Positions 12,313 to 63,961 of a stretch of 64,000 nucleotides of DNA are shown piece by piece. The stretch covers positions 1 through 64,000 of the forward strand of contig JAILWG010000003.1 in the NCBI GenBank assembly GCA_025699075.1. Direction: 5' to 3'. This stretch comes from Candidatus Nitrosopumilus sp. (GTDB lineage Archaea > Thermoproteota > Nitrososphaeria > Nitrososphaerales > Nitrosopumilaceae). How positions within the stretch are numbered: the first letter of the stretch is position 1; each line of letters begins with the position of its first letter. The position numbers and the translations under genes were made by a program. A model generated the notes under the pieces. That model ran no database searches. It saw nothing but the letters and a program-made list of their open reading frames with translations, and was not told the DNA's origin.

Positions 12313-12372
12313 TCTAATACACGATGAATCCTGAGCAATTCTTTTTAACCATTATCTGGTCGAGCTTTTAAA

Positions 12373-13554: not shown

Positions 13555-13556
13555 AA

Positions 13557-14240: not shown

Positions 14241-14246
14241 TTAGCC

Positions 14247-49031: not shown

Positions 49032-49098
49032 ATATAAAGTATCTTTGGTTTTGAGAACATAATGTCCTTTATCTATACTTTAATTCCATACTATACCA

Positions 49099-50490
49099 AT
49101 GGAGATTCGTCCTGATGAGATCACAAAATCAAAGAGCAAACCATTAGAGTTATTCTATTCATCAATTAGGGCAGAAGCTACAAGAAAAGATTACGAGCGT
49201 AAACTCAAAAAAGTACTATGTGAATTCTTTGCTCCAATATTGAAAGGTGATCCAAAACTAGTCCAAGAGGACAAAACTAGGTACAAAACAAAGTCCAGAG
49301 GCGTAAAAAGGACATTTTCTGATGCTGATTTTGAGGCAAGGGCAACAGAATTTGTAAGAAGAGCAGCAGAGAATCCTGATTGGGCCGAAGATCTGATGCT
49401 AAAGCTTGGTGAGAAATTCAAAAAACGCTCAGAATTACCAAAGACTGATTCAAACTATATCAATCCAGTTTCATTGAAAAATTATTTTGTTCCGATTCAA
49501 AAATTATTGGAAATGAATCGTGTAACTCTATCCTGGAAGAGAATTCGTTGCACATTGCCAGAACTAGATCATCAGGATGATACCAGAGAATACACATACT
49601 CTGAAATCCAAAAGATGCTACACCATTCAAAACTAATTGACAGAGTTTTGATTTTGCTTGCAGCATCTTCAGGAATCAGGGCAGGTGCATTTTCAATAAA
49701 ATGGAAACATCTTGTCCCAATTTACCTATACAATGAAAATTATCTTTGGGATGTTCAAGATGTTACAGAATCCGTTCAAAAAGAAGGAAAAGTAGTTGCA
49801 GCAATGATTCGAATCTATGCCAATTCAAGCTCTGAATATGTGGCCTTTATCACCCCTGAATGCTGGCATACAATAGAGTCTTACAGACAATTGTGGAGGC
49901 AAGAAACTAACAAGGAACCAAAACCTGATGATCCTTTCTTTAAGCGAAGTGGACCGTTCCCACGAGAACTCACTGAGATGGGAATCAGAAAGAGATTGGA
50001 GAGAGTCCTAAAAGAATCAGGAATTAGAACACCGTTACCTCAAGGAAAGAGACGTTATGATGTTCCAACCTTTAATGGGTTTAGAAGATTCTTCAACAAG
50101 GCAAACAAAAAGTCTCTTTCTAAAAATTCTGTATTGGCATCATTGATTCTAAAAGAAACAATGATGGGGCATGCAGGATTGATCAAGCTAGACAAAAATT
50201 ATTTCAAGGCCCACGTTAGTGAGCTAATTGAAGAGTATCTTAATGCCGTCCCAAATCTGACCATTTCAGACGAATTTAGGCTCAGAGCAGAGAATTCTAG
50301 GCTACAACAAGAGAGGGATTCAAACAAGACAGATGCTGAAACAATTGACAAACTCTGGGATAATATCCTGGAGTTGCAATTTGAGGTAAAATCACTACGT
50401 GCATCTGCGCAAACAAAATCAAACGATGAATTGCAAGAAAGGATTCAAAATCTAAAAAGCAAGAAAGAGAAACTTGATTCTTTGAAATAA
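49099..50490 (+). CDS. Tyrosine recombinase/integrase family protein
   Basis: 463 aa. Catalytic residues: R194 in SSGIRAGAFS, box II FNGFRRF (R329, with Asn326 where His is usual), GH at 357-358 in MMGHAG, and nucleophile Y368 in LDKNYFK. The N-terminal 150 residues would be the core-binding arm, and the last 70 are a coiled coil. It resembles the archaeal integrase-like group that is frequent in thaumarchaea. It starts at ATG 49099 after a gap of about 65 bp and is followed by 1.1 kb of repeat-rich non-coding DNA. Composition is visibly less AT-rich than its neighbours. No tRNA target is adjacent. Confidence 0.85.
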   Translation: MEIRPDEITKSKSKPLELFYSSIRAEATRKDYERKLKKVLCEFFAPILKGDPKLVQEDKTRYKTKSRGVKRTFSDADFEARATEFVRRAAENPDWAEDLMLKLGEKFKKRSELPKTDSNYINPVSLKNYFVPIQKLLEMNRVTLSWKRIRCTLPELDHQDDTREYTYSEIQKMLHHSKLIDRVLILLAASSGIRAGAFSIKWKHLVPIYLYNENYLWDVQDVTESVQKEGKVVAAMIRIYANSSSEYVAFITPECWHTIESYRQLWRQETNKEPKPDDPFFKRSGPFPRELTEMGIRKRLERVLKESGIRTPLPQGKRRYDVPTFNGFRRFFNKANKKSLSKNSVLASLILKETMMGHAGLIKLDKNYFKAHVSELIEEYLNAVPNLTISDEFRLRAENSRLQQERDSNKTDAETIDKLWDNILELQFEVKSLRASAQTKSNDELQERIQNLKSKKEKLDSLK

Positions 50491-50504
50491 TACTTTATAC
50501 TTTT

Positions 50505-50790
50505 AAAAAATAATTTATACATTATTTAATTTATAAATAATTTAAAATAATTTATAAAAAACTACGCGTGGAAATATTTTTGTAAAAAATCTTTATACAC
50601 AAAATTTATTCCTAAAAAATAATTTATAAAAAATCTCAATTAATTTATACATTAATTTAATTTATAAAAAATTACACGTAACAACAAAAACTAAATTGCT
50701 AATTTGGGAATGAACTCTTATTCCTAAAAAATAATTTATAAAAAATTCTAAATAATTTATAAATTAAATTTATTTATAAATAATTAATTG
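50505..50790. repeat. AT-rich array of AATTTATA repeats
   Basis: A non-coding stretch directly after the recombinase gene. AATTTATA occurs at 50512, 50528, 50549, 50621, 50642, 50659, 50733 and 50754, with one more at 51062. A longer unit, attcctaaaaaataatttat, occurs at 50609-50628 and 50720-50739. Local base composition is about 85% A+T, which would melt easily. No ORF of interest. Confidence 0.8.
50695..50708. repeat. 14-bp direct repeat, left copy
   Basis: ATTGCTAATTTGGG at 50695-50708 recurs exactly at 51537-51550. The two copies flank the CATG array. They could be recombination core sites, a target duplication, or remnants of a longer repeat. Confidence 0.6.
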
Positions 50791-50802
50791 CTTTATGGTT
50801 TC

Positions 50803-51331
50803 CATGTTTTCTCAAAGATGAAAACTTTACAGGCACAAAGAATTTCATGTTGATCAAACATGAAAAAACATGGATAACATTAACTATCTTTTTTCATGTT
50901 GTTGATGGGTAAAAAACATGAAATCCTATGTTCAACATGAAAATTCCATCTTTTTTGCATGATATGAAAAAACATGCACATGTCATGCAAAACATGAACA
51001 AGATTTTCCATCATATGATATTTGCACATGCCTGTGTTTTTTGTTTTTATTTTCTAAAAATAATTTATAAATTATTTTTTCATCCTTTGTCATGGTTTGT
51101 AAAAACATGAAACCATGTTAGGCACAAGCAATTTCATCTTGCATTTTCATGGTATACATGGCCCATGTTTTTCCATGGTTGGTGCATGTTTTTCATGGTT
51201 TGACGTTATCTGAAATCGAGGCTAATTCAGCATATCATGAACATGTTTTCCATGTATTTTCATGTCATGTACAACATGAAATTTTTACAGGCACAAAAAT
51301 TTTCCATCATTATTTCATCTTGTAAAACATG
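50803..51331. repeat. Dense CATG-centred repeat array
   Basis: About 30 CATG tetramers in about 530 bp; fewer than two are expected at this base composition. Most sit in AAACATG, TTTCATG, CATGAAA or CATGTTT context, so the region is full of overlapping inverted repeats. A second motif occurs three times: ttacaggcacaaa near 50828 and 51286 and a ttaggcacaagc variant near 51118, each followed by ATTTCAT or TTTTCCATCAT. No convincing coding sequence (an apparent ORF at 50928-51110 is made of the repeats). Function unknown. Confidence 0.82.
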
Positions 51332-51508
51332 GAAAATCTTGACAAAATCCAAATTTTTCATCTCACAATTTTAGAAATTCTAGATTTTAATTGAAAAGAA
51401 TTAGGATATTTGGAACCAATTTTCTACACAAAACATCTTGGAATCGTAATATTGAAAATATTTGCTGTAAAATAATTGCAAACAAACCTTCAGATGTAAG
51501 CTAGAAGC

Positions 51509-51557
51509 AACAGTACGGTACCACATTTTATTATGTATTGCTAATTTGGGTACTGTT
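51509..51557. promoter_or_regulatory. Inverted repeat AACAGTAC...GTACTGTT upstream of membrane protein gene
   Basis: AACAGTAC (51509-51516) and GTACTGTT (51550-51557) are perfect inverted copies with 33 bp between. GGTACC follows the left arm and GGGTAC runs into the right arm. This may be an operator for the gene at 51613 or arm sites for a recombinase. No protein is assigned. Confidence 0.4.
51537..51550. repeat. 14-bp direct repeat, right copy
   Basis: Second copy of ATTGCTAATTTGGG, 842 bp from the first. It lies inside the loop of the inverted repeat at 51509-51557, just before the unknown membrane protein gene. Confidence 0.6.
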
Positions 51558-51612
51558 ACCTTGATGGGACAAAATCTACCTGTTACCAATCGGGACATAG
51601 GTATGAGAGGCT

Positions 51613-52647
51613 ATGATCAACTTATTAGAAAATCAACCCACAAAACAAAATGTGAAATTAAGACAAGGAATTCTGTATCTAATCAGTACATTAGCGGGTT
51701 GGATTCTTACTCGAGTATTCGATTCCTTAGAACCTGCCATTATAACATCTGCCACAAACATTACACATATTCAGATACTGATGATTATTGATTTTGTCTT
51801 TATCGGCATATCGATATTTGGTGTTTTCCTTATTTTGAATGGAAAACGTAAATGGATAAATCTGTCTTTCAAATCTGAGGATAAAAAATCTAACTTCAAA
51901 TATGATTCAAAAAAACTCAATAACGAAGTATTCAAAAAGTTAATGAGAGTTATTTGTTTGGAATCACGTCTATTTTTTAAAAATAGATTTGGATTTTGTA
52001 TTCCAGTAAATCCAAAAATGTTTGAAATACCTGTAGATTCAGCACAAATTGCTTGGTATATCGATTTAGAAAAACCAGAAGATTTTGAACGAGATTTTAA
52101 GAGTATTGGTGAGGCTATACCTACTCTCAAAATTGGTGAAAAATATCTTGAAACAAACTATGTTGAAATTTACAAAATATGGAAGAATATTAAAAATGAT
52201 TTAGAAAAAATCAATAAAGATAGGGATAGTTTTTTTGCTGCTGTCGCCAAAGATGTAGGAAAACAGTTCAAAAAGACTCTAAATTACAAATCTAAATTTT
52301 TACTTGATCCCTTTGGTGATGAAATAGTATTTTTTGAAGAAAATATTTCTTTCATTATTCCTTTGTTATTTAAGACACGTTTAGTCAATTTATCAATTGA
52401 ACAGATAGCTGATAAACAATACTATGTTAGATATGGTGACAGTTACAACATTATTGGAAGCAATAAAGAAGAAAAAATCAATTTAAGTGGAATCAAGCAT
52501 ATTTTTGATTTAATATTGTGGAATGAAAATTTTAGTGAACAATACTCTGATTATCGTTATCAACTAATCGAATTAAACAAAAGAATTACTATATTTTGTC
52601 ATAAACTTGAGAAAGAGGTAGTTAATGATATTGAAAATATTGTTTAG
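51613..52647 (+). CDS. Unrecognised membrane protein of the island
   Basis: 344 aa. Two N-terminal spans (ILYLISTLAGWILTRVF and MIIDFVFIGISIFGVFLIL) anchor about 260 cytoplasmic residues, helical and Lys/Glu-rich, with no motif I can name (IKNDLEKINKDRDSFFAAVA, YYVRYGDSYNIIGSNKEEK). It lies in the accessory island and converges (4-nt overlap) with a ribbon-helix-helix gene. Two-span anchors with a cytoplasmic body occur in several defence effectors, but nothing specific supports that here. Confidence 0.7.
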   Translation: MINLLENQPTKQNVKLRQGILYLISTLAGWILTRVFDSLEPAIITSATNITHIQILMIIDFVFIGISIFGVFLILNGKRKWINLSFKSEDKKSNFKYDSKKLNNEVFKKLMRVICLESRLFFKNRFGFCIPVNPKMFEIPVDSAQIAWYIDLEKPEDFERDFKSIGEAIPTLKIGEKYLETNYVEIYKIWKNIKNDLEKINKDRDSFFAAVAKDVGKQFKKTLNYKSKFLLDPFGDEIVFFEENISFIIPLLFKTRLVNLSIEQIADKQYYVRYGDSYNIIGSNKEEKINLSGIKHIFDLILWNENFSEQYSDYRYQLIELNKRITIFCHKLEKEVVNDIENIV

Positions 52648-52804
52648 TTTTTCCTTAAATATTCACTAAGGATAACTCGGATCGTTTCAGGCACAGTTTC
52701 TAACAACCTTTCCTTGCGTTCTTTCTCTAATGCCTTTTCCATTTCAACAGGAACGGACACCATGTATTTTTTGGTTCTGTTACCTCTTAGGTTGTTTTCT
52801 TCAT
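52644..52804 (-). pseudogene. Frameshifted ribbon-helix-helix (CopG-like) regulator
   Basis: Reading from ATG 52804 gives MKKTT and a stop. One extra base in the A4 run would restore a 53-residue protein: MKKNNLRGNRTKKYMVSVPV, then EMEKALEKERKERLLETVPE and TIRVILSEYLRKN, a typical RHH fold. A TATA-like box precedes ATG 52804. As written, translation could still begin at ATG 52763 (39 aa), keeping most of the strand and both helices. Either a real frameshift or a homopolymer sequencing error. Confidence 0.6.
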
Positions 52805-52836
52805 GTTACCTATCGGTTGATAAAAAGATCGGGTAA

Positions 52837-53079
52837 TTACTTACCCACAATACGATATACTGAACCATCTTTTCTAACAAGCATTTTGTTTTTATGTTCT
52901 GTGAACTTCTCCTGTTTTATTCCAGCCTTGATGTAAGGCATACCATTCCAACCACCCTCGACGTATCGAGTTTCTTTAATGATGGATGATGATCCTCTGA
53001 CATCACTCGGTGAAATAACACTGCGTGGATTTACTGCATGTAAGAAACGGTTTGCTTTTCGTGTTATTTTCTTTGCCAT
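52837..53079 (-). CDS. Small basic protein of the island
   Basis: 80 aa from ATG 53079 (MAKKITRKANRFLHAVNPRS); an ATG two codons earlier (53085) is possible. Basic N-terminus, strand-rich C-terminus KNKMLVRKDGSVYRIVGK. Not recognised. It sits just upstream of the frameshifted RHH gene on the same strand, so both may belong to one mobile cassette. Confidence 0.6.
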   Translation of the reverse strand: MAKKITRKANRFLHAVNPRSVISPSDVRGSSSIIKETRYVEGGWNGMPYIKAGIKQEKFTEHKNKMLVRKDGSVYRIVGK

Positions 53080-53126
53080 GATCAATACAGAAAGTCATAG
53101 TATTTGAGAATTTATTTGTCAAATAA

Positions 53127-53744
53127 TCATACAGGGAGAATTACACTTGTACAAATTAAGAAATCAATAACACTTTCAAGTGAATCTCTAAATTCACGCC
53201 ATTTCATTTTGATTAATTTATTATGATGAATTATACCATCACGTAACTCAAACATCTTTTCAAATTTTTTCCAATTTTTATGCAATGGCGAGGCATACGG
53301 AATATGTACGTCATCATCATATGAAAAACCTCCACCTGTTTCACTTTCATATTTGATTTCATCAAAAAATCTTTTGTTAATAATATGTGAAAATAAAATA
53401 TTGATGTCTTTAAGATTCATAAAACTATAAGATGATATAATTTGTTGTTCCAATGGAACTTCTGAATTAATATTTTTAAGGATTTTTGATGTATCAATCT
53501 GATATGATTTAAAAATTCTCAATGCAGAATTTAACAAATAATTCTCAAAAATTGAGATGATTCTAACAATCAAATAATTCATAAGATAAATTCTAATCTC
53601 ATCTGATTCTTTACGAGATTTTATTTCATTAAGAATAGGTCTCATTTCAGTTTTTACAAATTTTCTGACAATTATCCAAAGCGGATCTTCATTTATTGCA
53701 TTTAATTTTCGCTTACTGAAAGACGCATTTCTTTTCTTGGACAA
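53127..53744 (-). CDS. Putative HEPN-domain protein
   Basis: 205 helical residues. RDGIIHH at 168-174 fits the HEPN RNase signature R-x4-H (R168, H173), and the long helix IYLMNYLIVRIISIFENYLL at 52-71 fits the first HEPN helix bundle (as in RiboL-PSP-HEPN/MAE_28990 proteins). HEPN proteins are commonly RNA-cleaving toxins or defence effectors. Start is TTG 53744, directly after the stop of the transposase remnant, so its native 5' end may have been altered. No MNT antitoxin is adjacent. Assignment moderate. Confidence 0.62.
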   Translation of the reverse strand: MSKKRNASFSKRKLNAINEDPLWIIVRKFVKTEMRPILNEIKSRKESDEIRIYLMNYLIVRIISIFENYLLNSALRIFKSYQIDTSKILKNINSEVPLEQQIISSYSFMNLKDINILFSHIINKRFFDEIKYESETGGGFSYDDDVHIPYASPLHKNWKKFEKMFELRDGIIHHNKLIKMKWREFRDSLESVIDFLICTSVILPV

Positions 53745-53924
53745 TTAATTAGATCTCTTGGTATTTTGAATTAAAGTTAACCACTTGTTATTACCTTTTA
53801 TTTCAATTCCACAGGCTTCGGCAGGCGTCTTGCCGTCTAGCCCCATGTGTGGTCTAACGTAATTATGATAAATTTGGTAGCCGTCAATGATTGCAATTAT
53901 TTTATTAAAAATGAGGGTACCAAA
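53745..53924 (-). pseudogene. 3' remnant of a DDE transposase (IS6/IS240-like)
   Basis: About 59 codons are open after a TAG. They encode IIDGYQIYHNYVRPHMGLDG followed by KTPAEACGIEIKGNNKWLTL, the typical C-terminal tail of a DDE integrase-type transposase. The catalytic domain is missing, so this is a truncated insertion sequence. It ends one base before the HEPN gene start. Confidence 0.82.
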
Positions 53925-53994
53925 CTAAATAATTAAAGTCTAAATTTACGACAATATTGTATAACGTATTCTTAAAATTAATCAAAAAAGACCT

Positions 53995-54333
53995 TTAGGA
54001 ACGCATATTTTTCATATTATGAAACCAGTCGTTTGAATTCTTAATATCTTTGATGATGTTTTGAACTTTACTTATTTTACTTTTTATAATATTTGCAATT
54101 TGTATTCGTTCTTCCTCCACCATATCTCTTCCTAATACACAACGAGCTGTGGCAAACGCAATCCCCTGAAGTTCTCCCATAAAGTACCCTTGAATGAAAT
54201 CCTGTGGGTTCTCTATGTCTCCAAACTGCATAGTAAATTTTTTCAAATTATTTTCTGTAAGTTTAATTCCGCTGTATGCTTTTATTGATAAATCAAGAGT
54301 ATCGTCTATGGTTTTTCTGAATTCTTCCTTCAT
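53995..54333 (-). CDS. Unrecognised 112-aa helical protein
   Basis: Soluble helical protein (EFRKTIDDTLDLSIKAYSGI, FIQGYFMGELQGIAFATARC, IQIANIIKSKISKVQNII). No known motif. It lies between the transposase remnant and an RHH gene in the island. Confidence 0.62.
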   Translation of the reverse strand: MKEEFRKTIDDTLDLSIKAYSGIKLTENNLKKFTMQFGDIENPQDFIQGYFMGELQGIAFATARCVLGRDMVEEERIQIANIIKSKISKVQNIIKDIKNSNDWFHNMKNMRS

Positions 54334-54494
54334 TATGTTTTCACTTTTAAAAAATCATAACAACTGAATTTCCCCATGATTAAATTTCTTTTCATAAATT
54401 TCAATAAAAGTATTCATCTCAAATACAATTTTTATAATTTGATTCTTTTTTTGTGTCACAATGTATTACAAAAGATTTTTCTAGACTGGGTATG

Positions 54495-55040
54495 TTATTT
54501 TACATTTTTTGATTTAATCTCTAACATGATGGAATTTTCAGTGTATTCTGATTGAACATTTGTCCCCATTTCAAAGAATACTGTGTTGTAATAAGTCTCA
54601 AAAAATAAAGACCATTTTTCTCCCATGTCGTGATACAACACCAATCGTATGGTGTCCTTTTCTAGGTATTCCTTGATGGAAAAATTAGAAGATTTTGCTC
54701 TGTTTTTTAATATGGAAATCCATTCGTCAATACCGTGTTTTCCACGCATGGATAATGCAATTTCCTTTGATCCGCTCTCAGCTGAATTTTTTGCAATTTG
54801 AATAATTGTTTCATTGTCTAAATTTTTAATGATTTCCTTCATCGCAGATTTCAACATGACCACCCATCCTACTTCGGGTGCCAAAAGATTCCAGTTTAAG
54901 TGAGAATCAAAAATGCGATTAACATATGTGTTAAGACTAAGATGTTCTTCTCTTGAAACTGTCTTTAGTGAGTCGAGAACCTTCTTGTCAATTCTAAAAC
55001 TTACATGTTCGGTAGGCAGTTTTTTTCTTGCATTTGTCAC
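54495..55040 (-). CDS. Ribbon-helix-helix DNA-binding protein with C-terminal domain
   Basis: 181 aa from GTG 55040 (MTNARKKLPTEHVSFRIDKK). The RHH lies at the N-terminus (VSFRIDKKVLDSLKTVSREE then LSLNTYVNRIFDSHL), followed by a 140-residue C-terminal domain of unknown type (GWVVMLKSAMKEIIKNL; IRLVLYHDMGEKWSLFFETY). The frame is open to a TTG at 55124. I prefer 55040 because residues before it look non-conserved. A near-palindrome upstream may be its own operator. Confidence 0.7.
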   Translation of the reverse strand: MTNARKKLPTEHVSFRIDKKVLDSLKTVSREEHLSLNTYVNRIFDSHLNWNLLAPEVGWVVMLKSAMKEIIKNLDNETIIQIAKNSAESGSKEIALSMRGKHGIDEWISILKNRAKSSNFSIKEYLEKDTIRLVLYHDMGEKWSLFFETYYNTVFFEMGTNVQSEYTENSIMLEIKSKNVK

Positions 55041-55115
55041 ATTTGATTTTGTATGTGTAAGCGATTTTAATCTATTGAAAAAAAGTTGATTTTTTTGACT
55101 GGTTAAAAAACCATT

Positions 55116-55132
55116 GTGGAACAATGTACCAC
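55116..55132. promoter_or_regulatory. Near-palindromic operator candidate
   Basis: GTGGAACAATGTACCAC: arms GTGGxACA and TGTxCCAC match except for one base per arm. It lies upstream of the RHH gene start at 55040 and about 150 bp before the divergent TFB gene. RHH proteins bind such palindromes, so autoregulation is plausible. Confidence 0.45.
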
Positions 55133-55166
55133 ATAGTATACCAATTAATTAAATTCATGAAAAAGG

Positions 55167-55259
55167 ATGGACTTTATGAACAGATGCTATTTTGAAAAGA
55201 ATGCAAAATTAGACTGTCCTGAAAATTTTACACGGATTATTGAAAACGCAAAAAAATAA
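55167..55259 (+). CDS. Possible 30-aa peptide upstream of tfb
   Basis: ATG 55167 encodes MDFMNRCYFEKNAKLDCPEN and ends RIIENAKK, five bases before the TFB start. It has two cysteines. There is a purine-rich aaaagg just upstream. Coding status uncertain. Confidence 0.3.
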   Translation: MDFMNRCYFEKNAKLDCPENFTRIIENAKK

Positions 55260-55264
55260 GATAA

Positions 55265-56263
55265 GTGAAAATGAATATGGATTCAACATTAAATTATGAT
55301 TTTAAATTCAAATGTCAGAGATGTGGTAAAAAACAAATCATTTCTGATTTTAATTTAGGAGAAATTTTCTGTGGGCATTGCGGATTTGTATTCAATGAAA
55401 AATTAGAAAATTTAGGATATGGGTCTGGTATTGTAGATAATAACAAAGACACTCGTCGAACAGGCATACCTGTCACATTATCAAGAAATGATTTTGGTCT
55501 TTCTACTATAATTGGATCTGAAAATAAAGATGTACATGGAAAACCTATTCCCAATTCAGCCTTCTCGACAATTAAACGAATTCGAATCCAAGACAACAGA
55601 AGTCAATTAGGAAAACATTCGGATTCAAACTTTAAAATTGCATTTGAATTTCTTGATGGAATTCAAGATAAATTAGATGTACCCGATAGTGTAAAAGAGA
55701 CTGCTGCGTATATTTACAGAAAAGCAGTAGAACAAAAAATCACTATGGGCAGATCCATTTATTCAGTGATTGCCGCATCGATGTACATTGCATGTAGAAA
55801 TATGCATATGCTTCGAAATCTAAGTGACATATCTGAAATTACTAATATTAAAAGAAAGAAAATTGCTCAAAGTTACCGTGCAATTGTAAAACAATTGGAT
55901 ATGAAAATACCTGTAGTCAATCAAATTGACTATGTTTTAAAAATTTCAAATACTTTGAAGGTATCTGTAGGAACAAAAAATCTTGCATTAAAAATTCTAA
56001 AAATGGCTGAAAAATTAGACATGATGGCAGGACGTGATCCTGCGGGCATGGCTGCAGCTTCTGTTTATTATTCTGGTTTGATAAGGGGAAAAAGAATCTC
56101 TCAGTTACATATAGCTGATGCAACAGGAATTACTCCTGTTACAATAAGGAATAGGTTCAAAGAAATAAAACAAAAGATACCTCTTCAAAACGAAGAAGGG
56201 AAAAAGAAAATTTTGGACATATATCCTCAAGCTGATTCCGATTTTAGTTTTGGAGATAAATGA
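55265..56263 (+). CDS. tfb: Transcription initiation factor IIB (TFB)
   Basis: 332 aa. Zinc ribbon C17-C20/C36-C39 (FKCQRCGKK, IFCGHCGFV), B-reader/linker (GIPVTLSRNDFGLSTIIG), and two cyclin-like repeats (SDSNFKIAFEFLDGIQDKL; IDYVLKISNTLKVSVGTKNL) ending with an HTH (GITPVTIRNRFKEI). It recruits RNA polymerase with TBP. Thaumarchaea carry several TFBs; this one adjoins an Lrp-like gene and precedes the ectoine cluster, suggesting a condition-specific paralogue. Start GTG 55265, or ATG 55271. Confidence 0.95.
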   Translation: MKMNMDSTLNYDFKFKCQRCGKKQIISDFNLGEIFCGHCGFVFNEKLENLGYGSGIVDNNKDTRRTGIPVTLSRNDFGLSTIIGSENKDVHGKPIPNSAFSTIKRIRIQDNRSQLGKHSDSNFKIAFEFLDGIQDKLDVPDSVKETAAYIYRKAVEQKITMGRSIYSVIAASMYIACRNMHMLRNLSDISEITNIKRKKIAQSYRAIVKQLDMKIPVVNQIDYVLKISNTLKVSVGTKNLALKILKMAEKLDMMAGRDPAGMAAASVYYSGLIRGKRISQLHIADATGITPVTIRNRFKEIKQKIPLQNEEGKKKILDIYPQADSDFSFGDK

Positions 56264-56264
56264 C

Positions 56265-56507
56265 ATGGGAAATTCCAGTGTCGCATTTGTGTTAATAATG
56301 TGTAAATTCGAATCAATTTCTGAGATTCTTCAACAGATGAATGAAGTAGATGTTGTTGCAGAAACTGCCATTGTTGTAGGCCCATGGAAAATAATTGTAA
56401 AACTAGAAGCAACAGATCTAGATCATATTAGAGAAGCAATAAGATGGAAACTTCGTAAGATGACTGGAATAGAGTCGACATTAACGTTAGTAGAATATAT
56501 GAGTTAG
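56265..56507 (+). CDS. Stand-alone Lrp/AsnC ligand-binding protein
   Basis: 80 aa from ATG 56265, one base after the TFB stop; the frame extends to TTG 56250. RAM fold: VAFVLIMCKFESISEILQQM, VVGPWKIIVKLEATDLDHI, GIESTLTLVEYMS. No DNA-binding domain. The coupling to a TFB gene suggests that it modulates that factor (inference). Similar protein at 6110. Confidence 0.85.
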   Translation: MGNSSVAFVLIMCKFESISEILQQMNEVDVVAETAIVVGPWKIIVKLEATDLDHIREAIRWKLRKMTGIESTLTLVEYMS

Positions 56508-56563
56508 ATGATGAATTGCCAAAAATCAAAACCAGTCGTAAGTGTGGAGGGATTATTCAAAAC

Positions 56564-56653
56564 ATGAAAAAGTGTATTGTTTGCGGTAGGGAATTTGATC
56601 ATTGGTGTGACGATGTTTGTTCTACAGAGTGCTCAAGTAAATTAGAAAATTAA
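56564..56653 (+). CDS. Small zinc-finger peptide (29 aa)
   Basis: ATG 56564: MKKCIVCGREFDHWCDDVCS then TECSSKLEN, with five cysteines in the CxxCgk.F...CS.eC arrangement of short treble-clef fingers. An in-frame TTG at 56516 would add 16 residues. It lies just after the Lrp-like gene. Confidence 0.5.
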   Translation: MKKCIVCGREFDHWCDDVCSTECSSKLEN

Positions 56654-57038
56654 AGATTGATGGATCAGTCCAATACTCTGACTGACAATATTTTATTAAA
56701 AATATGATTTCTAAACATCATGGAACTAGAATTGATTATAACTCACATTTGACCTTAACCGTGCACAGGTGCAGTTTTTTCTGCAAAATCAAAAGATAAT
56801 TCTTTTGAAGTAACCACAATATTGTAATTATTTCAGGACAAATCTATTTTCACAATCTTGTATAGGGTTATGAAGAAATTTTTGGCAACTAAAGTAAGAA
56901 TTTACATAATCTATCTAACGATGACGAATAAGAAAGGGTATCAAAAAAGGACGATCGAAAAAAATTCAAATAACATTGACCATAAACGAATGAAAATATA
57001 ATTTGTTCATCTCTTGTATCTAAAGTCTATTTAAAATA
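56654..57038. other. Intergenic region without a convincing gene
   Basis: 385 bp. Only tiny ORFs such as 56922-57002 (26 codons, Lys/Asn-rich) are present and I see no coding signal. It presumably contains the 3' end of the TFB transcript and of the opposing MscS-like gene. Confidence 0.5.
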
Positions 57039-57527
57039 TCAATTTGTGCCTTTTTTTATTCCCTTTGCTTTTGTATTGCTAACTATAGAAACCTCTTCAT
57101 CAAATTTTTTGTTTGGAATTAACATCAATCTTGAATCATCCAGCTCCACAATTGTTTTCGTTAGTCCGATTTGAATGATTTTTCCCCGTTTTCCGTCAAA
57201 TTCGATACTGCTTTCTACGTTAATTCTTCTTCCTAACGCTATACTCATACCAGATATTGCGTTTTGTAGTTTATTCAGATAGATAAATGTGAAAAATAAT
57301 AGTATAGCACTTAGTGATGCAACTACTTCTATTGCTGGAGATAATATCTTCAATGTTACTGAAAGATACATTATTTCGGCAATTGCAATTATTATAAAAA
57401 TCACACCTGTTGCTTTGCCAGATCCTAACAATGTCTTAAATTTTGTAATTTCTATCATTTTGATAATGGTAAAAACTGATGCAGTAATTGCAATTGAAAT
57501 AATCGCATAAAATATGTTATCTTCCAC
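57039..57527 (-). CDS. Small MscS-type mechanosensitive channel protein
   Basis: 162 aa. Three spans (about 5-22, 38-58, 65-85) then the pore-lining segment and MscS beta domain: NAISGMSIALGRRINVESSI, GKRGKIIQIGLTKTIVELDD, LMLIPNKKF. It lacks the large cytoplasmic cage of E. coli MscS. It adjoins ectABCD; a channel gene beside ectoine genes is known in Nitrosopumilus relatives and would release solutes after hypo-osmotic shock. Confidence 0.88.
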   Translation of the reverse strand: MEDNIFYAIISIAITASVFTIIKMIEITKFKTLLGSGKATGVIFIIIAIAEIMYLSVTLKILSPAIEVVASLSAILLFFTFIYLNKLQNAISGMSIALGRRINVESSIEFDGKRGKIIQIGLTKTIVELDDSRLMLIPNKKFDEEVSIVSNTKAKGIKKGTN

Positions 57528-57635
57528 ATTTTCAACTAATTTAAAAAAAGAATAAAAAAACCTGTATCGTTAGAAGCTTAATTTAATAATATTTGTTGAC
57601 AAAACATTAACTAATTATTTTTGTAAGAATTCACA

Positions 57636-58013
57636 ATGACTGAAAATGAAGACATGGTAAAAAATTTGGCAGAGTGTTTTCAAACTAAAGGATTACAAGT
57701 TCTGACTGCAAAATGTGGTGATTTTGACGAACCTCCTGAGATTCAAGGTGTTAAGCCAGATGTAATAGGTTGGGATTCGGAAAATGAAGTATATCATTTG
57801 GCAATTGTTGCTGATTCTGATACTATTGATAACGATTCTACACAAGAAAAAATAAATGTATTATCAAAACAAGCAATGGGTACTGGCCCTTCTTGTGGCA
57901 AACGTTTGCCATTTTATGTTGGAACTACAAAAGATGCAGATGCTGTTGTTGATAAAAAATTAGAAGGAATAGATAATACATCCAGAGAAAACACACAAAA
58001 AATTCTGATTTAA
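57636..58013 (+). CDS. 125-aa protein, possible restriction-endonuclease-like fold
   Basis: MVKNLAECFQTKGLQVLTAK, then VKPDVIGWDSENEVYHLAIV. A PD followed by a beta hairpin recalls PD-(D/E)xK folds, but the second acidic/lysine pair is not obvious. It starts the cluster with ectA 5 nt downstream, so it may be co-transcribed with ectABCD. Function unassigned. Confidence 0.68.
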   Translation: MTENEDMVKNLAECFQTKGLQVLTAKCGDFDEPPEIQGVKPDVIGWDSENEVYHLAIVADSDTIDNDSTQEKINVLSKQAMGTGPSCGKRLPFYVGTTKDADAVVDKKLEGIDNTSRENTQKILI

Positions 58014-58018
58014 GAGAT

Positions 58019-58522
58019 ATGACTTCTATTATTTTTAGAGAACCTTTAGTTAGTGATGCTAACTCTATTTGGAATCTGGTAACCTCTAATAAGCCTCTTG
58101 ATGAGAATTCTAAATATCTTTATGTCTTACTTTGCCATCAATTTTCAAAAACATGTGTAGTTGCAGAACACGATTCTAAAATTGTTGGATTTCTTTCAGG
58201 CTTTATTTCTCCAAAAAATCCAGACACACTTTTTGTTTGGCAGGCAGCTGTAGATGATAAATTTAGAAACAAAGGCATTGCAAAAGAACTTGTCTTTAAG
58301 GCATTATCTCAAACAGAGCCCTCTGTGAGATTTGTTGAGGCGACTGTAACTCCTTCTAACAAAGCTTCGTTGAAATTTTTACAGAATTTTGCCTCTCAAC
58401 TAGATGCCAACTTTACAAAAATGCCCCTATTTTCAACAGAAATCTTGGGAAATGGTCACGAACCTGAAGATCTTGTTAGAATTGGTCCAGTTCAAAAAAA
58501 TCTATTGGAGGTTACAGCATGA
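58019..58522 (+). CDS. ectA: L-2,4-diaminobutyrate acetyltransferase
   Basis: GNAT-fold enzyme forming N-gamma-acetyl-diaminobutyrate. 167 aa. EctA features: REPLVSDANSIWNLV, KYLYVLLCHQFSKTCVVAE, FVWQAAVDDKFRNKGIAKEL (acetyl-CoA loop). It overlaps ectB by 4 nt. Confidence 0.95.
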   Translation: MTSIIFREPLVSDANSIWNLVTSNKPLDENSKYLYVLLCHQFSKTCVVAEHDSKIVGFLSGFISPKNPDTLFVWQAAVDDKFRNKGIAKELVFKALSQTEPSVRFVEATVTPSNKASLKFLQNFASQLDANFTKMPLFSTEILGNGHEPEDLVRIGPVQKNLLEVTA

Positions 58523-59814
58523 AACAAATCAATGCTATTGAATCTCAAGTAAGATCTTATTGCAGAGCATATCCTGTAATGTTTGAAAAAGCGAAAGGTC
58601 CATTCCTTATTGATGAAGATGGAAAAAAATACTATGATTTTCTATGTGGTGCTGGATCTCTAAATTATGGTCACAATAATCCAATTCTTAAAAAAGAGAT
58701 TATCAATTATCTTAACCAAGATGGAATAACACACAGTCTCGATCTTGCCACAAAGTCTAAAGAAGAGTTCTTAGATTCTTTCTCAAAAAATATTTTGGCT
58801 CCTAGACATATGAGCTATAAAATCCAGTTTACTGGGCCTACTGGAACAAATGCAGTGGAAGCAGCACTAAAGATTGCAAGAAAAGTTACAGGTCGAACTC
58901 ATATAATCTCATTCACAAACGGTTTTCATGGTGTAACACTAGGTTCTGTAGCTGCTACAGGAAACAAACATCATAGAGGTGGTGCAGGAACATCTCTAAA
59001 CGATGTTACATTTATGCCATATGATGGTTATATGGGAAAAAAAATCAACACTGTTGATTACCTGCGACGTGTTTTGGAGGATAATAGTAGTGGAATAGAT
59101 GTTCCAGCTGCTGTTATTTTAGAAACCGTTCAAGGTGAAGGTGGTATTAACATTGCAAGCTCCAAATGGCTTCAATCTTTACAAGATCTTTGTCATGAAT
59201 TTGGAATCTTGATGATTGTAGATGATATTCAAGTAGGTTGTGGTCGTACTGGTACATTTTTCAGTTTTGAAAATTTGGGTATTGAACCTGATCTAATAGT
59301 AATGTCAAAATCTCTCAGTGGATTTGGATTACCTTTTTCATTACTTTTACTAAGACCTGAACTTGACAAATGGAAGCCTGGGGAACACAATGGGACCTTT
59401 AGAGGAAACAATATGGCATTTCTTACTGCCAAGACTGCAATTGATCATTTTTGGACTACGCAGGAATTAGAAGCAGAAATTGCAATTAAATCTAATATTT
59501 TACAAACTAGGCTTGAAAAAATTACTAAAGAAAATCTTTCTTCTGAGATTGAAGTTCGTGGAAAAGGCATGGTTTATGGAATTGATTGTATTTTAGAAGA
59601 TTTGGCAAGTGCAATTAAACAAAAATGCTTTGAAAATGGATTAATTCTTGAAACATGTGGATCTGATGACCAAGTTGTAAAACTTCTTCCTGCTTTGACT
59701 ATTGCTGAAAATGACTTGAGAGAAGGATTGAATATTTTGGAGAAAAGTGTCAAACAAGTAATGAGTCAATCTGATTTTCAGAAAAAACTTGAAGATTGGG
59801 TAGTTCAAAAATGA
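58519..59814 (+). CDS. ectB: Diaminobutyrate-2-oxoglutarate transaminase
   Basis: PLP class III aminotransferase supplying diaminobutyrate from aspartate semialdehyde. 431 aa. FTGPTGTNAVEAALKIARK, FTNGFHGVTLGSVAATGN, VDDIQVGCGRTGTFFSFE and the PLP lysine in VMSKSLSGFGLP. It is in the ectABCD operon; the stop overlaps the ectC start. Confidence 0.96.
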   Translation: MKQINAIESQVRSYCRAYPVMFEKAKGPFLIDEDGKKYYDFLCGAGSLNYGHNNPILKKEIINYLNQDGITHSLDLATKSKEEFLDSFSKNILAPRHMSYKIQFTGPTGTNAVEAALKIARKVTGRTHIISFTNGFHGVTLGSVAATGNKHHRGGAGTSLNDVTFMPYDGYMGKKINTVDYLRRVLEDNSSGIDVPAAVILETVQGEGGINIASSKWLQSLQDLCHEFGILMIVDDIQVGCGRTGTFFSFENLGIEPDLIVMSKSLSGFGLPFSLLLLRPELDKWKPGEHNGTFRGNNMAFLTAKTAIDHFWTTQELEAEIAIKSNILQTRLEKITKENLSSEIEVRGKGMVYGIDCILEDLASAIKQKCFENGLILETCGSDDQVVKLLPALTIAENDLREGLNILEKSVKQVMSQSDFQKKLEDWVVQK

Positions 59815-60200
59815 TAGTACGTAATATTGAATCTCTTCGTGAAACAGAACGACAAATTGATTCAAAAAATTGGTCAAGCACCAGACTTATTCTTAAAGAT
59901 GATGACATGGGTTTTTCATTTCATGAAACTGTTCTTTATCCTGACACGGAAACCAAAATTTGGTACAAAAATCATCTTGAAGCAGTATATTGTATTGAAG
60001 GAACTGGTGAAATTCAAGAAGATGATGGAACAAAACATAACATTAACCCCGGAACCATTTATGCTTTAGACAAACATGACAAACATGTTCTTAGAGCATT
60101 TTCAAAAATGAGGATGATTTGTGTATTTAATCCTCCATTGGTTGGACCTGAAAAACATGACGCAAATGGAGTTTATCCTTTAATTAATCCAGGATCTTAA
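59811..60200 (+). CDS. ectC: L-ectoine synthase
   Basis: Cupin that closes the tetrahydropyrimidine ring. 129 aa from ATG 59811 (MIVRNIESLRETERQI); an upstream in-frame start (59796) would lie inside ectB. Metal and substrate residues in WYKNHLEAVYCIEGTGEIQE and DKHDKHVLRAF. ATGA overlap with ectB. Confidence 0.95.
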   Translation: MIVRNIESLRETERQIDSKNWSSTRLILKDDDMGFSFHETVLYPDTETKIWYKNHLEAVYCIEGTGEIQEDDGTKHNINPGTIYALDKHDKHVLRAFSKMRMICVFNPPLVGPEKHDANGVYPLINPGS

Positions 60201-60202
60201 TT

Positions 60203-61123
60203 ATGTCTGACAATAAAACTGAAATGGATTTTTATCCTACTCGAACTAGTTCTAAATCAAGTGTTCTTCCAAGAACAGATCCTGTTACATATTGTGATTC
60301 TTGTGATGAATTAACTAAAGACCAAGTTGAATTCTTTGAAAAAAATGGATATATTATTTTTGAGAATTTGTTTTCTTCTGATGAGGTTGGTAAATTATTT
60401 GATGAACTTACTTTACTTTCTAATGATGAAACAAAAAAAGATATGCCACAATTTATCTTAGAAGAAACACAAAGAGATGTACGATCTATTTTTGAAGTTC
60501 ATAAAATTAGTACATTATACAATCGACTTTGTAGAGATAAGAGAATTTTAAAAATTGTACAACAACTTTTGGGAAGTAAAGTCTACATTCATCAATCTAG
60601 GGTAAATCTTAAACCTGGATTTGATGGTAAAGAGTTCTATTGGCATTCTGATTTTGAAACCTGGCACTCTGAAGATGGCATGCCAAATATGCGTGCCATA
60701 TCTTGTTCAATTAGTCTGACTAAAAATTATGAGTTTAATGGGCCACTAATGGTGATTCCTGGTTCACACAAGGATTTTGTATCTTGTAGTGGGAAAACTC
60801 CTGATGATCATTACAAACAATCTCTAAAAAGGCAAGAAATAGGCACTCCTCCAAAAGAAATTCTAGAACAAATGGTTGAAAAAAGTAAGATTGTGTCTGC
60901 AAAAGGCAGTGCTGGCTCAGTAATATTTTTTGATTGTAATATTATGCATGGTTCAAATGGAAATATCACGCCTTATCCTAGAAGTAATGCATTTTTTGTT
61001 TATAACAGCATTTGTAATACTTTGGTAGAACCATTTTGTGGTTTGAAACCTAGGCCAAATTATATTGCCTCGCATGATTTTAACCCTCTTGAATCTGTAG
61101 ATAGTTTCTTACATTCAAAATGA
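60203..61123 (+). CDS. ectD: Ectoine 5-hydroxylase
   Basis: 2-oxoglutarate/Fe(II) dioxygenase (phytanoyl-CoA hydroxylase family) converting ectoine to 5-hydroxyectoine. 306 aa. Iron ligands in YWHSDFETWHSEDG (HxD) and IMHGSNGN (distal His). It has the signature of EctD rather than a generic PhyH enzyme. Two bases separate it from ectC. Confidence 0.95.
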   Translation: MSDNKTEMDFYPTRTSSKSSVLPRTDPVTYCDSCDELTKDQVEFFEKNGYIIFENLFSSDEVGKLFDELTLLSNDETKKDMPQFILEETQRDVRSIFEVHKISTLYNRLCRDKRILKIVQQLLGSKVYIHQSRVNLKPGFDGKEFYWHSDFETWHSEDGMPNMRAISCSISLTKNYEFNGPLMVIPGSHKDFVSCSGKTPDDHYKQSLKRQEIGTPPKEILEQMVEKSKIVSAKGSAGSVIFFDCNIMHGSNGNITPYPRSNAFFVYNSICNTLVEPFCGLKPRPNYIASHDFNPLESVDSFLHSK

Positions 61124-61230
61124 TGACTATGACTCTGTACACAAAACTAAACACAGAATTAAAACAATTTCAAAAACATGGCAATGCTATTGTGTTTTTT
61201 AAAAATATTTCAAAAGTATTGGTAAGCTGA
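61120..61230 (+). CDS. Possible 36-aa peptide after ectD
   Basis: ATG 61120 overlaps the ectD stop (ATGA) and reads MMTMTLYTKLNTELKQFQKH then GNAIVFFKNISKVLVS. Coupled position supports it, but the sequence has no recognisable feature. Confidence 0.32.
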   Translation: MMTMTLYTKLNTELKQFQKHGNAIVFFKNISKVLVS

Positions 61231-61305
61231 ATTTTTTACTGTATATTTTATTCCACAATTCTATGTCTATGTAAATTTGAAAACATAAAAAAGAAAAAAT
61301 TAGTT

Positions 61306-61488
61306 TTAATGCATTTGTTTTGCTAAAACCATGTTATTAAGATCAATTACCATACATGCTGGATGTGCAATTTTTTCTACCATTATTCCACAAGTATGAC
61401 AAAATAATCTTGTTGGTTCATTACAAAATTTGCATCTGTGTTCTACTTCTAATTTTGAATCACATATTTTACAAGATTTGTTTTGCAT
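61306..61488 (-). CDS. 60-aa multi-CxxC zinc protein
   Basis: MQNKSCKICDSKLEVEHRCK, FCNEPTRLFCHTCG and a final HPAC: three CxxC pairs plus His, enough for two zinc sites in a B-box/ribbon-like arrangement. Function unknown. Confidence 0.72.
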   Translation of the reverse strand: MQNKSCKICDSKLEVEHRCKFCNEPTRLFCHTCGIMVEKIAHPACMVIDLNNMVLAKQMH

Positions 61489-61605
61489 GATGTTGAATAG
61501 AAAAATTGATTTAAAAATAATACTAAAATTAGAAGCAGCTAATTAGTCTAAGCTATATTTCTGATTCTATATGATGAGAATTACTTTTATTTAATTTCCC
61601 CTCTT

Positions 61606-61719
61606 ATGCCTTTGCTTGTTCATATTCACATGCTTTTAGAAAAACCTGAATTAAATGAAAAACAAAAAAGTCATCTTACTCTGATAAAAAATAACCTGTT
61701 ATCTGGCATGAATCTATGA
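61606..61719 (+). CDS. Possible 37-aa peptide
   Basis: ATG 61606, after a TATA-like ttttatttaat. Sequence MPLLVHIHMLLEKPELNEKQ then KSHLTLIKNNLLSGMNL, an amphipathic helix pair. It precedes the structured leader of the copper oxidase operon. Coding potential modest. Confidence 0.35.
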   Translation: MPLLVHIHMLLEKPELNEKQKSHLTLIKNNLLSGMNL

Positions 61720-61761
61720 CAAAAAATTCACAGTTTTGAACTGGTCTGGGGTGACCGCATA

Positions 61762-61915
61762 TTCTCGCATAGTTATATTATTTCTGAGCATGACCTCTAG
61801 TCAGCTATTTAGCTGACCATCCCTTATCATCTCCTACATAGTATCTATAATCATGCGAGAACAACATTTCCCTAGACACGAAAGCCATTGTGAGTTTTTT
61901 TCACAATGTTCTCGC
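61762..61915 (+). promoter_or_regulatory. Structured leader with competing inverted repeats
   Basis: TTCTCGCAT (61762-61770) is complementary to ATGCGAGAA (61853-61861). The latter's core GCGAGAA also pairs with TTCTCGC (61909-61915). Between them lie perfect hairpins GTCAGCT-attt-AGCTGAC (61800-61817) and CATTGTGA/TCACAATG (61886-61893/61901-61908, T-rich loop). The two pairings of 61853-61861 exclude each other. It sits 24 bp before a small membrane protein gene and the multicopper oxidase. It could be an RNA switch, a DNA operator array, or a small RNA gene. Confidence 0.5.
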
Positions 61916-61938
61916 TTTACACTAATGGAGATAATCTC

Positions 61939-62055
61939 ATGAATTTAGCACTAAAACAAAAAGTAAAACTTACAATGCCTCGCCACAAAAAGGCATTTTA
62001 TGGATTCTATATCATTACAGCTGTTTCTATAGTGGTACTATCATTGGTGTTATAG
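61939..62055 (+). CDS. 38-aa membrane protein upstream of multicopper oxidase
   Basis: ATG 61939 with GGAG 8 nt upstream. Basic N-terminus (MNLALKQKVKLTMPRHKKAF) then a single span GFYIITAVSIVVLSLVL. The oxidase ATG follows 12 nt after its stop with its own AGGAG, so they form an operon. It may anchor or assist the exported copper protein (inference). Confidence 0.65.
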   Translation: MNLALKQKVKLTMPRHKKAFYGFYIITAVSIVVLSLVL

Positions 62056-62058
62056 GAG
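62054..62058 (+). promoter_or_regulatory. Ribosome binding site of the multicopper oxidase
   Basis: AGGAG 9 nt before ATG 62068, partly overlapping the stop of the preceding 38-aa gene. It supports ATG 62068 as start and translation from a polycistronic mRNA. Confidence 0.7.
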
Positions 62059-62067
62059 AAAAATAGG

Positions 62068-63402
62068 ATGAAACAAAACACAACAATGTTTGTAGTAGTG
62101 GGAGTAATCATTGGATTCAGTATTGCATTTGCAGCATTTATTCAATCACCAGAAATTCAAACAACCATTGCCGACTCATCTGAGATTTATCCAAAATTTA
62201 CAAATCCTAATCCTAAGACATTATCTTATACGTTAATTGCTCAAGACGCTGAAATTGAAGTGTCACCTGGCATACAAGCTAAAGTCTGGACGTACAACGG
62301 AACAGTTCCTGCACCAACTTTGAGATTTTCAGAAGGTGATGATGTTACTGTAAAATTTGTAAACGAAACTCCTTATGCACACACAATCCATTTTCATGGA
62401 ACACATGATTCTACAAATGACGGTGTTTTTCCACAGATAATGCCTGGTGAGGAGTACACGTATCGTTTTGTTGCACATGAAGCTGGCATGTTCATGTATC
62501 ATTGTCATGCATTTCCAACATCAGAGCATGTAAGAATGGGAATGTTTGGTGCAATGATAATTGATCCTGCCATACGTCCAATGGAGCCAGCACGAGAATA
62601 CTTTTTCACTCTAAGTGAGTTTGATCCTAATAATGCATTAGAATACTTTACAGAATTTTATCCAATTAACGGCTATGCAAATCAATACATGGACAATCCA
62701 ATCAGAGTTGTTTCAGGAGAGTTAACTCGATTCTATGTGGTTGGAATTGGAGGAGTTTTGCAATCTCCCTTTCATGTTCACAGTACAATAATGAAAGTAT
62801 ATCCTTCAGGAATTTTATGGAACGAGCCATACTTTGCACAGACACATCTGATTGGAAACGGTGATACGGCAATTATTGAGGCAACATGGGATACTCCAGG
62901 AAAATATTTGTTCCATGTGCATGGAATTCAGGAAGAACGTGGCTCCATGGCAATAATTGAGGTGTTAGAAGATGCATCATCATTATCTAAGATTCAAACT
63001 CCTAGTAACAACAAAGGAAGCTATTCCATGATAGAGTGGCAAGAAGATTTGATAAAATCATTGGAACAACCACAACTAATCTCGTATGATAACCTGGGAG
63101 AAGTAAAAGTTAGTGATGTTCCTAAAGTAAAGACAGACAAAGTAGACATTGTAAAGGATTCATGGAATCCAGATATTGTGGAATCATATGATCCTCTTGC
63201 AATCGAAATTGAATCAGGAACAACTGTTACATGGACAAACCAGGACTTTGTTGTACACACTGTAACTGACAAGGAAAATTCATTTGATTCAGGATTCATT
63301 CAGGCAGGAAAAACTTGGTCATATCAATTTGAAAATAAAGGAGAATTGGATTATTTCTGCACTTTACACCCTTGGATGCAAGGAACTGTCACAATAACCT
63401 AA
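62068..63402 (+). CDS. Two-domain multicopper oxidase with C-terminal cupredoxin domain
   Basis: 444 aa, signal/anchor at residues 7-24. Domains 1 and 2 (about 50-300) contain four HxH pairs: H108/H110 (HTIHFHG), H145/H147 (YHCHAF), H236/H238 (FHVHS) and H283/H285 (FHVHG). These are the eight ligands of a trinuclear copper cluster. Type 1 copper in domain 1 uses H105, C146 and probably H154 and M159. Copper nitrite reductase would have Asp where H108 is, so a laccase-like oxidase is favoured over NirK. Residues 375-444 are a plastocyanin-like domain (H397, C431, H434, M437). Confidence 0.88.
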   Translation: MKQNTTMFVVVGVIIGFSIAFAAFIQSPEIQTTIADSSEIYPKFTNPNPKTLSYTLIAQDAEIEVSPGIQAKVWTYNGTVPAPTLRFSEGDDVTVKFVNETPYAHTIHFHGTHDSTNDGVFPQIMPGEEYTYRFVAHEAGMFMYHCHAFPTSEHVRMGMFGAMIIDPAIRPMEPAREYFFTLSEFDPNNALEYFTEFYPINGYANQYMDNPIRVVSGELTRFYVVGIGGVLQSPFHVHSTIMKVYPSGILWNEPYFAQTHLIGNGDTAIIEATWDTPGKYLFHVHGIQEERGSMAIIEVLEDASSLSKIQTPSNNKGSYSMIEWQEDLIKSLEQPQLISYDNLGEVKVSDVPKVKTDKVDIVKDSWNPDIVESYDPLAIEIESGTTVTWTNQDFVVHTVTDKENSFDSGFIQAGKTWSYQFENKGELDYFCTLHPWMQGTVTIT

Positions 63403-63415
63403 ACATAAAACTGAA

Positions 63416-63799: not shown

Positions 63800-63961
63800 T
63801 TCTCTTGCTTTGTTCAATAAAGTACAAAAAATCAGATAAGAATTGGACAATATTTTCTGACTAATCTTTGGAATGTATTTTTGATGGACTAAATTATCTC
63901 CAATAATGGTTCAAGCCTTATAGGATTCAATTTTGAATCTCATTTTCTTCTCCAAAAAAGT

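What the first reader, a model, noticed from the sequence alone, without database searches (positions are those of the whole stretch)
50491..51612. Tyrosine recombinase followed by a 1.1-kb non-coding array of AATTTATA and CATG repeats
Directly after a complete recombinase gene lie eight AATTTATA copies (50512-50761) and about 30 CATG sites in about 530 bp, where under two are expected. The CATG sites sit in AAACATG/TTTCATG contexts forming overlapping inverted repeats, with three ACAGGCACAAA-type motifs interspersed. An easily melted block next to an iteron-like block resembles a replication origin or a recombinase accessory-site array. No known family explains both blocks with this recombinase.
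Basis: partly seen in the sequence, partly recalled or inferred. Interest (0 to 1): 0.72.

Follow-up and report, generated by a model that had tools for sequence, protein, structure and literature searches.

The report
Recombinase tail-linked, word-switching DNA arrays
Next to a DNA-rearranging enzyme gene in a marine archaeon lies a non-coding stretch built from one short word repeated many times, and related genes in other archaea carry the same kind of stretch with a different word, apparently inherited together with the enzyme's tail; its job is unknown.

Summary
The array is real: 29 CATG in 536 bp (dinucleotide shuffles 5.9, maximum 12) and 8 AATTTATA (0.36, maximum 3). It follows the first gene of a 40.7-kb integrated element bounded by 12-bp repeats. 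It belongs to a class of non-coding arrays 3' of tyrosine recombinases with dissimilar cores in Nitrosopumilus and relatives. Modules of about 150-400 bp share boxes (AT box, AGGCACAAA, ATCGAGSCTAAT), but iterate different words: CATG, AAGATCT, AAGCTTA, ATCGAT, AACAGCT, CCAACC and others. Array type goes with the recombinase's C-terminal coiled-coil tail rather than its catalytic core: cores 85-88% identical with different tails carry different arrays, and two expectations from tails were borne out at loci fetched afterwards. Among 91 recombinases picked by protein similarity, 10 have arrays; same-tail pairs share them more than chance (of 103 pairs 6 both, 2 one, 95 none; permutation p 0.005). 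RNA-structure, restriction-decoy and lambda-like arm-site readings are disfavoured. Function is inferred only: most likely an element-specific nucleoprotein-assembly locus (iteron- or centromere-like) whose word can change.

The parts
49041..49052 (.). attL core ATCTTTGGTTTT; the same 12 bp recur at 89781-89792 of the same contig (attR), outside the window; between them lies a 40.7-kb integrated element
   Evidence: split match of an empty-site locus, sequences printed, empty sites
49099..50490 (+). tyrosine recombinase (integrase), 463 aa, first gene of the element
   Evidence: invariant R194, R329, H358, Y368 in an alignment of 40; AlphaFold2 mean pLDDT 82.9, pTM 0.55; Foldseek best match XerA 5hxy, probability 1.00, E 1.1e-5
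50323..50490 (+). variable C-terminal tail (residues about 409-463), part of one long helix, that co-varies with the array type
   Evidence: helix 391-462 in the model; conservation drops after residue 400; tail comparisons
50494..50790 (.). AT block: 8 AATTTATA copies in three clusters, 12% G+C
50791..51055 (.). module 1: iterated word AAACATG; R box CAGGCACAAA at 50830-50839; boundaries set by eye
51056..51080 (.). AT box AATAATTTATAAATTATT between the two CATG modules
51081..51345 (.). module 2: CATG words; R boxes at 51120 (variant) and 51288-51297; boundaries set by eye
51215..51226 (+). C box ATCGAGGCTAAT, found in other type A arrays and, as ATCGAGCCTAATACAGGG, in type B arrays
51453..51556 (.). 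conserved right flank, 91 of 104 positions identical to the 3' side of the array at L375
   Evidence: blastn
51613..52647 (+). next gene, 344-aa protein, apparent membrane segments by eye, no Pfam match; not shown to belong to the array

Best explanation
Shown: the array is part of an integrated element and one of a class of modular non-coding arrays at the 3' end of recombinase genes. Modules have a conserved framework (AT box, R box AGGCACRAA, central C box, not every box in every type) and arms made of a short word iterated in both orientations; words differ between elements, between close orthologs and often between modules of one array. Array type goes with the recombinase's C-terminal tail. 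Inferred: the words are binding sites for a sequence-specific protein, and the array nucleates a multi-protein DNA complex that the element needs when it is excised or replicated (iteron- or centromere-like), with the recombinase tail as a docking or oligomerising part. A changing word would give each element its own specificity, as incompatibility determinants do for plasmids.
For: Repeat excess and module-specific words: each of 21 modules reaches p 0.005 at one or more of k 5-7, 200 shuffles. Shared framework of four modules from four genomes, 71% mean column identity. The C box occurs once in the 40.7-kb element, at the array. An ortholog keeps the framework and changes the word. Tail-array coupling: 85-88% identical cores with different tails have different arrays; dissimilar cores with similar tails (L086, L087, L088/L089) have type A; expectations from tails met at L375 and L395; permutation p 0.005. 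AT block at or near the stop codon.
Against: No reader protein is identified, and different words inside one array would need different readers. The element has a ParB_N protein, a weak ribbon-helix-helix resemblance (E 0.02) and several winged-helix regulators, none next to the array; no ParA was found and no clear Rep (one winged-helix protein, 88236-88748, also matches RepL barely above cut-off, far below its other helix-turn-helix matches). Tail and array are neighbours, so joint exchange could be mere linkage. 81 of 91 recombinases show no such array at the cut used, though some of these (L295, L301, L307, L374) look like short arrays by eye. One tail group is mixed (G030 z 15.8; G033 3.9; L374 6.6). 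R-type and AT-type boxes also occur singly elsewhere in the element.
Confidence: 0.4

Rival explanations
1. Accessory (arm-type) sites of the recombination reaction, as in lambda attP: the recombinase or a partner binds the words to set direction or topology of excision.
For: Arrays described here lie 3' of the recombinase (one exception, L090) and go with its tail; in three type B modules the words are inverted about the central box, left GCTGT 8 / ACAGC 3, right 0 / 8.
Against: The array starts about 1.45 kb from attL and is not next to attR; recombinases with similar cores go with different words, and one recombinase with modules of different words.
Confidence: 0.2
2. A structured non-coding RNA or single-strand hairpin, with palindromic words pairing within the module.
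For: Four module sequences (five folds, four as DNA and one as RNA) are more stable than dinucleotide shuffles, z -3.2 to -5.7.
Against: Palindromic words give this for free. Consensus folding: covariation term +3.0 with 4 of 64 pairs compensated in type A; only 5 pairs in type B, 4 of them with a two-sided change; four sequences each, so low power. Rfam found only three tRNAs in seven loci, none in the arrays.
Confidence: 0.13
3. A by-product: slippage and template switching amplify whatever short palindrome sits in an AT-rich, weakly constrained region; only the boxes (or nothing) matter.
For: L089 has extra tandem AATCTTACC-like units relative to L085, L087 and L088; words change fast between orthologs.
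Against: CATG copies are irregularly spaced and words lie in both orientations rather than in tandem; they arise repeatedly in the same framework; ordinary 3' flanks rarely show the like (2 of 116 at z>=10).
Confidence: 0.17
4. Decoy or marker sites for restriction or methylation, since several words are restriction palindromes (CATG, AGATCT, AAGCTT, ATCGAT).
For: Several words are palindromic.
Against: Words are not clearly avoided elsewhere: in 107.9 kb of the own genome CATG 418 seen / 471 expected, AAACATG 21 / 20.5; AGATCT 14 / 13 in G063; AAGCTT 6 / 6.3 in G092; ATCGAT 2 / 1 in G086, all on small samples. Other words (CCAACC, TCCTCA, AACTAAC) are not palindromes.
Confidence: 0.04

Closest known systems
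Cryptic integrated elements of Thaumarchaeota (Krupovic et al. 2019, PMC6563490; passages read)
   Same: Tyrosine recombinase, short direct-repeat att sites, intergenic or tRNA targets, auxiliary metabolic genes such as multicopper oxidase
   Different: In the passages read, no 3' word arrays or recombinase tail exchange are described
Iteron origins and heptad-type plasmid centromeres (recalled)
   Same: Short words iterated in both orientations beside an AT-rich block; element-specific sequence
   Different: Word often differs between modules of one array; no adjacent initiator or ParA/ParR pair found; linked to a recombinase tail
lambda attP with arm-type sites (recalled)
   Same: Recombinase gene near repeated sites around a central box
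   Different: About 1.45 kb or more from the att core; arms vary while the recombinase core stays similar
Integron attC cassette arrays (recalled)
   Same: Tyrosine recombinase followed by modules separated by a constant repeat
   Different: Modules carry no obvious ORFs; attC signatures were not looked for

Membership tests
Tyrosine recombinase | Catalytic R...HxxR...H...Y | tested here: met
   R194, R329, H358, Y368 invariant in an alignment of 40; the usual HxxR histidine is N326, also invariant; residue roles assigned from recalled family knowledge, catalytic Lys not assigned
Tyrosine recombinase | Catalytic fold | tested here: met
   Foldseek to XerA, XerH, Cre, lambda Int at probability 0.97-1.00; TM-scores low, 0.24-0.31 by query length
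Tyrosine recombinase | Pfam Phage_integrase match | tested here: not met
   No Pfam match at E<=0.01 for this protein; of array-bearing L085-L088, two match above cut-off (L085, L087), L088 below it, L086 not
Thaumarchaeal cryptic integrated element | Integrase next to att direct repeats, empty site in relatives | tested here: met
   12-bp repeats at 49041 and 89781; empty sites in relatives
Thaumarchaeal cryptic integrated element | No viral, casposon or conjugation signature genes | tested here: met
   None among Pfam matches of all 45 listed ORFs of 80 aa or more (one scanned without its last 20 residues); many have no Pfam match
Iteron replication origin | AT-rich block plus iterated words | tested here: met
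Iteron replication origin | One iteron sequence per origin | tested here: inconclusive
   Met in the window (CATG in both modules) but not in L086, L294, L299 and L372
Iteron replication origin | Cognate initiator gene on the element | tested here: inconclusive
   No clear initiator among 45 ORFs; one winged-helix protein at 88236-88748 matches RepL at 21.4 bits (cut-off 20.3), behind HTH_24 at 61.2
Iteron replication origin | Autonomous replication or binding by initiator | not testable with these tools
   needs experiment
Plasmid centromere | ParA-type ATPase with centromere-binding protein | tested here: inconclusive
   ParB_N protein at 63994-64806, about 12.6 kb from the array; no ParA among the Pfam matches
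lambda-type attP arms | Sites flank the att core within about 250 bp (recalled) | tested here: not met
   Array begins about 1.45 kb from attL
Structured RNA | Compensatory base-pair changes | tested here: inconclusive
   Little support, with four sequences each

The most novel reading that the evidence does not exclude
A new kind of specificity system: the recombinase's exchangeable C-terminal tail and a 3' array form one unit, and the array keeps a fixed framework while its reading word is rewritten wholesale within close lineages, so that related elements in one host tell self from non-self.
Probability: 0.27. Interest if true: 0.87.

Novelty: new variant of a known kind. Interest (0 to 1): 0.7.

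Why it matters
Element-borne tyrosine recombinases carry much gene flow in ammonia-oxidising archaea, and how integrated elements without recognisable replication genes are maintained is open. A recurrent cis-acting locus that travels with the integrase tail gives a concrete candidate, and its word-switching makes a testable question of how a whole set of sites can change at once.

Tried and rejected
AT-box-to-R-box pattern in the order: 8 of 400 genomes matched; 3 (G063, G086, G097, all in the genus) hold modules by box scoring, the other 5 do not. The pattern also missed the window itself, so it is no census. Helical phasing of CATG: no clear period. A second CATG-rich stretch at 62395-63027 lies in a multicopper oxidase gene. 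Exact 13-mer copies of the tRNA end beside L085, L088 and L089 were not found within those loci, so their att sites stay undefined. C box exact: 16 places in 14 of 95 genomes; 4 (L104, L109, L112, L117) lie in arrays, the other 12 have no R box within 700 bp. Cdc6_C: no match in the own, incomplete genome; the control genomes that rang were not thaumarchaeal, so the test is weak. L414 and L420 share a tail (score 163) and both have arrays, but their arrays do not match each other by blastn, so I do not call them one type.

Weak points of the statistics: the cuts z>=10 and tail score>=120 were chosen after looking; pairs and labels are not independent of descent. The 39 recombinases were chosen by hand, mostly the longer matches, from the list. 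The background (116 flanks) comes from a few loci and includes some recombinase flanks. L085-L090 were found by array similarity and are left out of the 91. The tail expectations for L375 and L395 were formed before fetching but were not logged. Short type C modules (L295 and L307 z 2.9, L374 6.6, L301 7.0) are called by eye and do not pass the cut. Module boundaries were set by eye; in several modules some word lengths are not significant (for example L299 second module k 5 p 0.07, G030 k 7 p 0.095).

Full report
1. The observation. The counts stand: 29 CATG in 50800-51335 and 8 AATTTATA in 50512-50761, both far above dinucleotide shuffles. Two CATG modules (50791-51055, 51081-51345) are separated by an AT box (51056-51080); each module's word is in excess on its own.

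2. The setting. In relatives the neighbouring 160-aa gene is followed by an unbroken site. Of 30 loci, 17 could be anchored by my pattern; 5 of these show AGTATCTTTGGTTTTTATTACC exactly, 3 a near variant, 2 (the own genome and G033) are occupied, and 7 differ otherwise. In the own genome the site is split between 49052 and 89781, with ATCTTTGGTTTT at both ends. So the recombinase is the first gene of a 40.7-kb integrated element. Cargo includes ectoine synthase beside acetyltransferase, class-III aminotransferase and PhyH genes (58019-61123), a multicopper oxidase, two TFIIB-type factors, a ParB_N protein and two MscS-type channels. All 45 listed ORFs of 80 aa or more were scanned with Pfam: no viral, conjugation or clear replication gene. 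One winged-helix protein matches RepL marginally. The array lies 1.45-2.3 kb from attL.

3. The recombinase. No Pfam match, but 365 homologs at E<=1e-5, some of the 120 listed named integrase; invariant R194, R329, H358 and Y368 in an alignment of 40; and a model whose best solved matches are XerA, XerH, Cre and lambda Int. Residues 391-462 are one long helix, and this tail is poorly conserved.

4. A class of arrays. A DNA search of 95 genus genomes led to AT-bounded arrays at L085-L090. L085-L089 follow recombinases with cores unlike or only distantly like the window's; L090 has none next to it. Type A has AT box, R box AGGCACAAA and C box ATCGAGGCTAAT or a near form. Type B (L296, L298, L299) has lead box GATGTCTTATAATATACG or similar and centre ATCGAGCCTAATACAGGGTAAAA, with a strongly conserved stretch of about 80 bp in four modules, partly missing in L298. 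Type C (L294, L301, L395, G030, and by eye L295, L307, L374) has AGGCACRAA-like boxes and ATATAGGGAA-like centres. L414 and L420 are further arrays. Leading words of the modules tested: AAACATG, AAGATCT, AAGCTTA, CTTCAA, AAGTCAT, ATCGATA, CAATGA, ATCATC, ACCTTG, AACAGCT, CCTAAA, CCAACC, AACTAAC, GTTACA, TCCTCA. The own genome holds a second array, type B, at G000:C5:9640-9939 (L298).

5. Framework fixed, word free. Homologous modules of L085, L087, L088 and L089 align at 71%; AAGATCT leads in L085, L088 and L089, ATCGATA in L087. L372 (Nitrosarchaeum MAG), with an 86% identical recombinase and the same tail (49 of 64), has AT box, R box and two C boxes after the stop codon, matching the window by blastn over the AT-to-R part (79% over 124), but its words are AAAGATG and AATCTTG.

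6. Array follows tail. L085 and L299 cores are 295/346 identical, tails differ, arrays A and B. L088 and L294 cores 326/370, arrays A and C. Window and G030 cores 281/378, arrays A and C. Dissimilar cores L086, L087 and L089 share tails (L086-L087 47/72, L086-L089 43/67) and have type A. From tails I expected type A beside P0070 and an L294-like array beside P0027. L375 (core about 47% identical) has TTTATAAA-rich blocks, ATCGAGGCTAAT at +644 and the window's right flank at 91 of 104; no exact R box or AT box was found there. L395 matches the L294 array at 73% over 219 positions, E 6e-24.

7. Controls. Of 91 recombinases picked by protein similarity (39, 48, and G030, G033, L372, L374), 10 have z>=10 in the 250-bp repeat test, against 2 of 116 ordinary 3' flanks (Fisher p 0.005). 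Same-tail pairs: 103, of which 6 both with arrays, 2 one, 95 none; permutation p 0.005. Against the reading: 81 of 91 have no such array at this cut, and the G030/G033/L374 group (tail scores 125-127 to G030) is mixed.

8. What it might do. RNA folding has little covariation support (four sequences each). Words are not clearly avoided in the genomes sampled. Distance from att argues against lambda-like arms. I prefer a nucleoprotein-assembly locus whose word is element-specific; no reader protein is known, so this is inference. Linkage without function remains open, since tail and array are neighbours.

9. Literature. The listings, and passages of PMC6563490 and PMC8371274, show no such arrays; other papers were seen only as listings. 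Lambda, iteron, centromere and integron comparisons are from recall. That the own genome is a Nitrosopumilus is inferred: the contigs of G033 and G030 have the lengths of records named Nitrosopumilus sp..

Noticed in passing
49041-64000 (element continues to 89792 of the contig): A 40.7-kb integrated element carries ectoine synthase with neighbouring acetyltransferase, class-III aminotransferase and PhyH genes, MscS-type channels, a multicopper oxidase and two TFIIB-type factors.
   Followed up: partly
G000:C5:9640-9939 (L298:1941-2240): A second, type B array after another recombinase in the same genome, word CAGCTA/ACAGCT.
   Followed up: partly
L090:8400-8900 (G092:C86): A type A-like module (word ACCTTG) with no recombinase next to it; two recombinases lie about 16-18 kb away on the contig.
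   Followed up: partly
1-700: Strong repeat signal (z 18): a nearly exact duplicated stretch in what looks by eye like a coding region for a zinc-ribbon-like, arginine/serine-rich protein.
   Followed up: no
12251-14400: Two further repeat-rich 700-bp windows (z 6.9 and 6.5), not examined.
   Followed up: no
own genome, 107.9 kb examined: GATC is under-represented (308 seen, 465 expected by the Markov estimate).
   Followed up: no
L399 (G199:C15), first 200 bp after the recombinase: Repeated GAACTATTC and ACTTTC/GAAAGT words, z 8.1, possibly another array type.
   Followed up: no
50695-50708 and 51537-51550: The 14-mer ATTGCTAATTTGGG occurs inside the AT block and again in the conserved right flank.
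   Followed up: no
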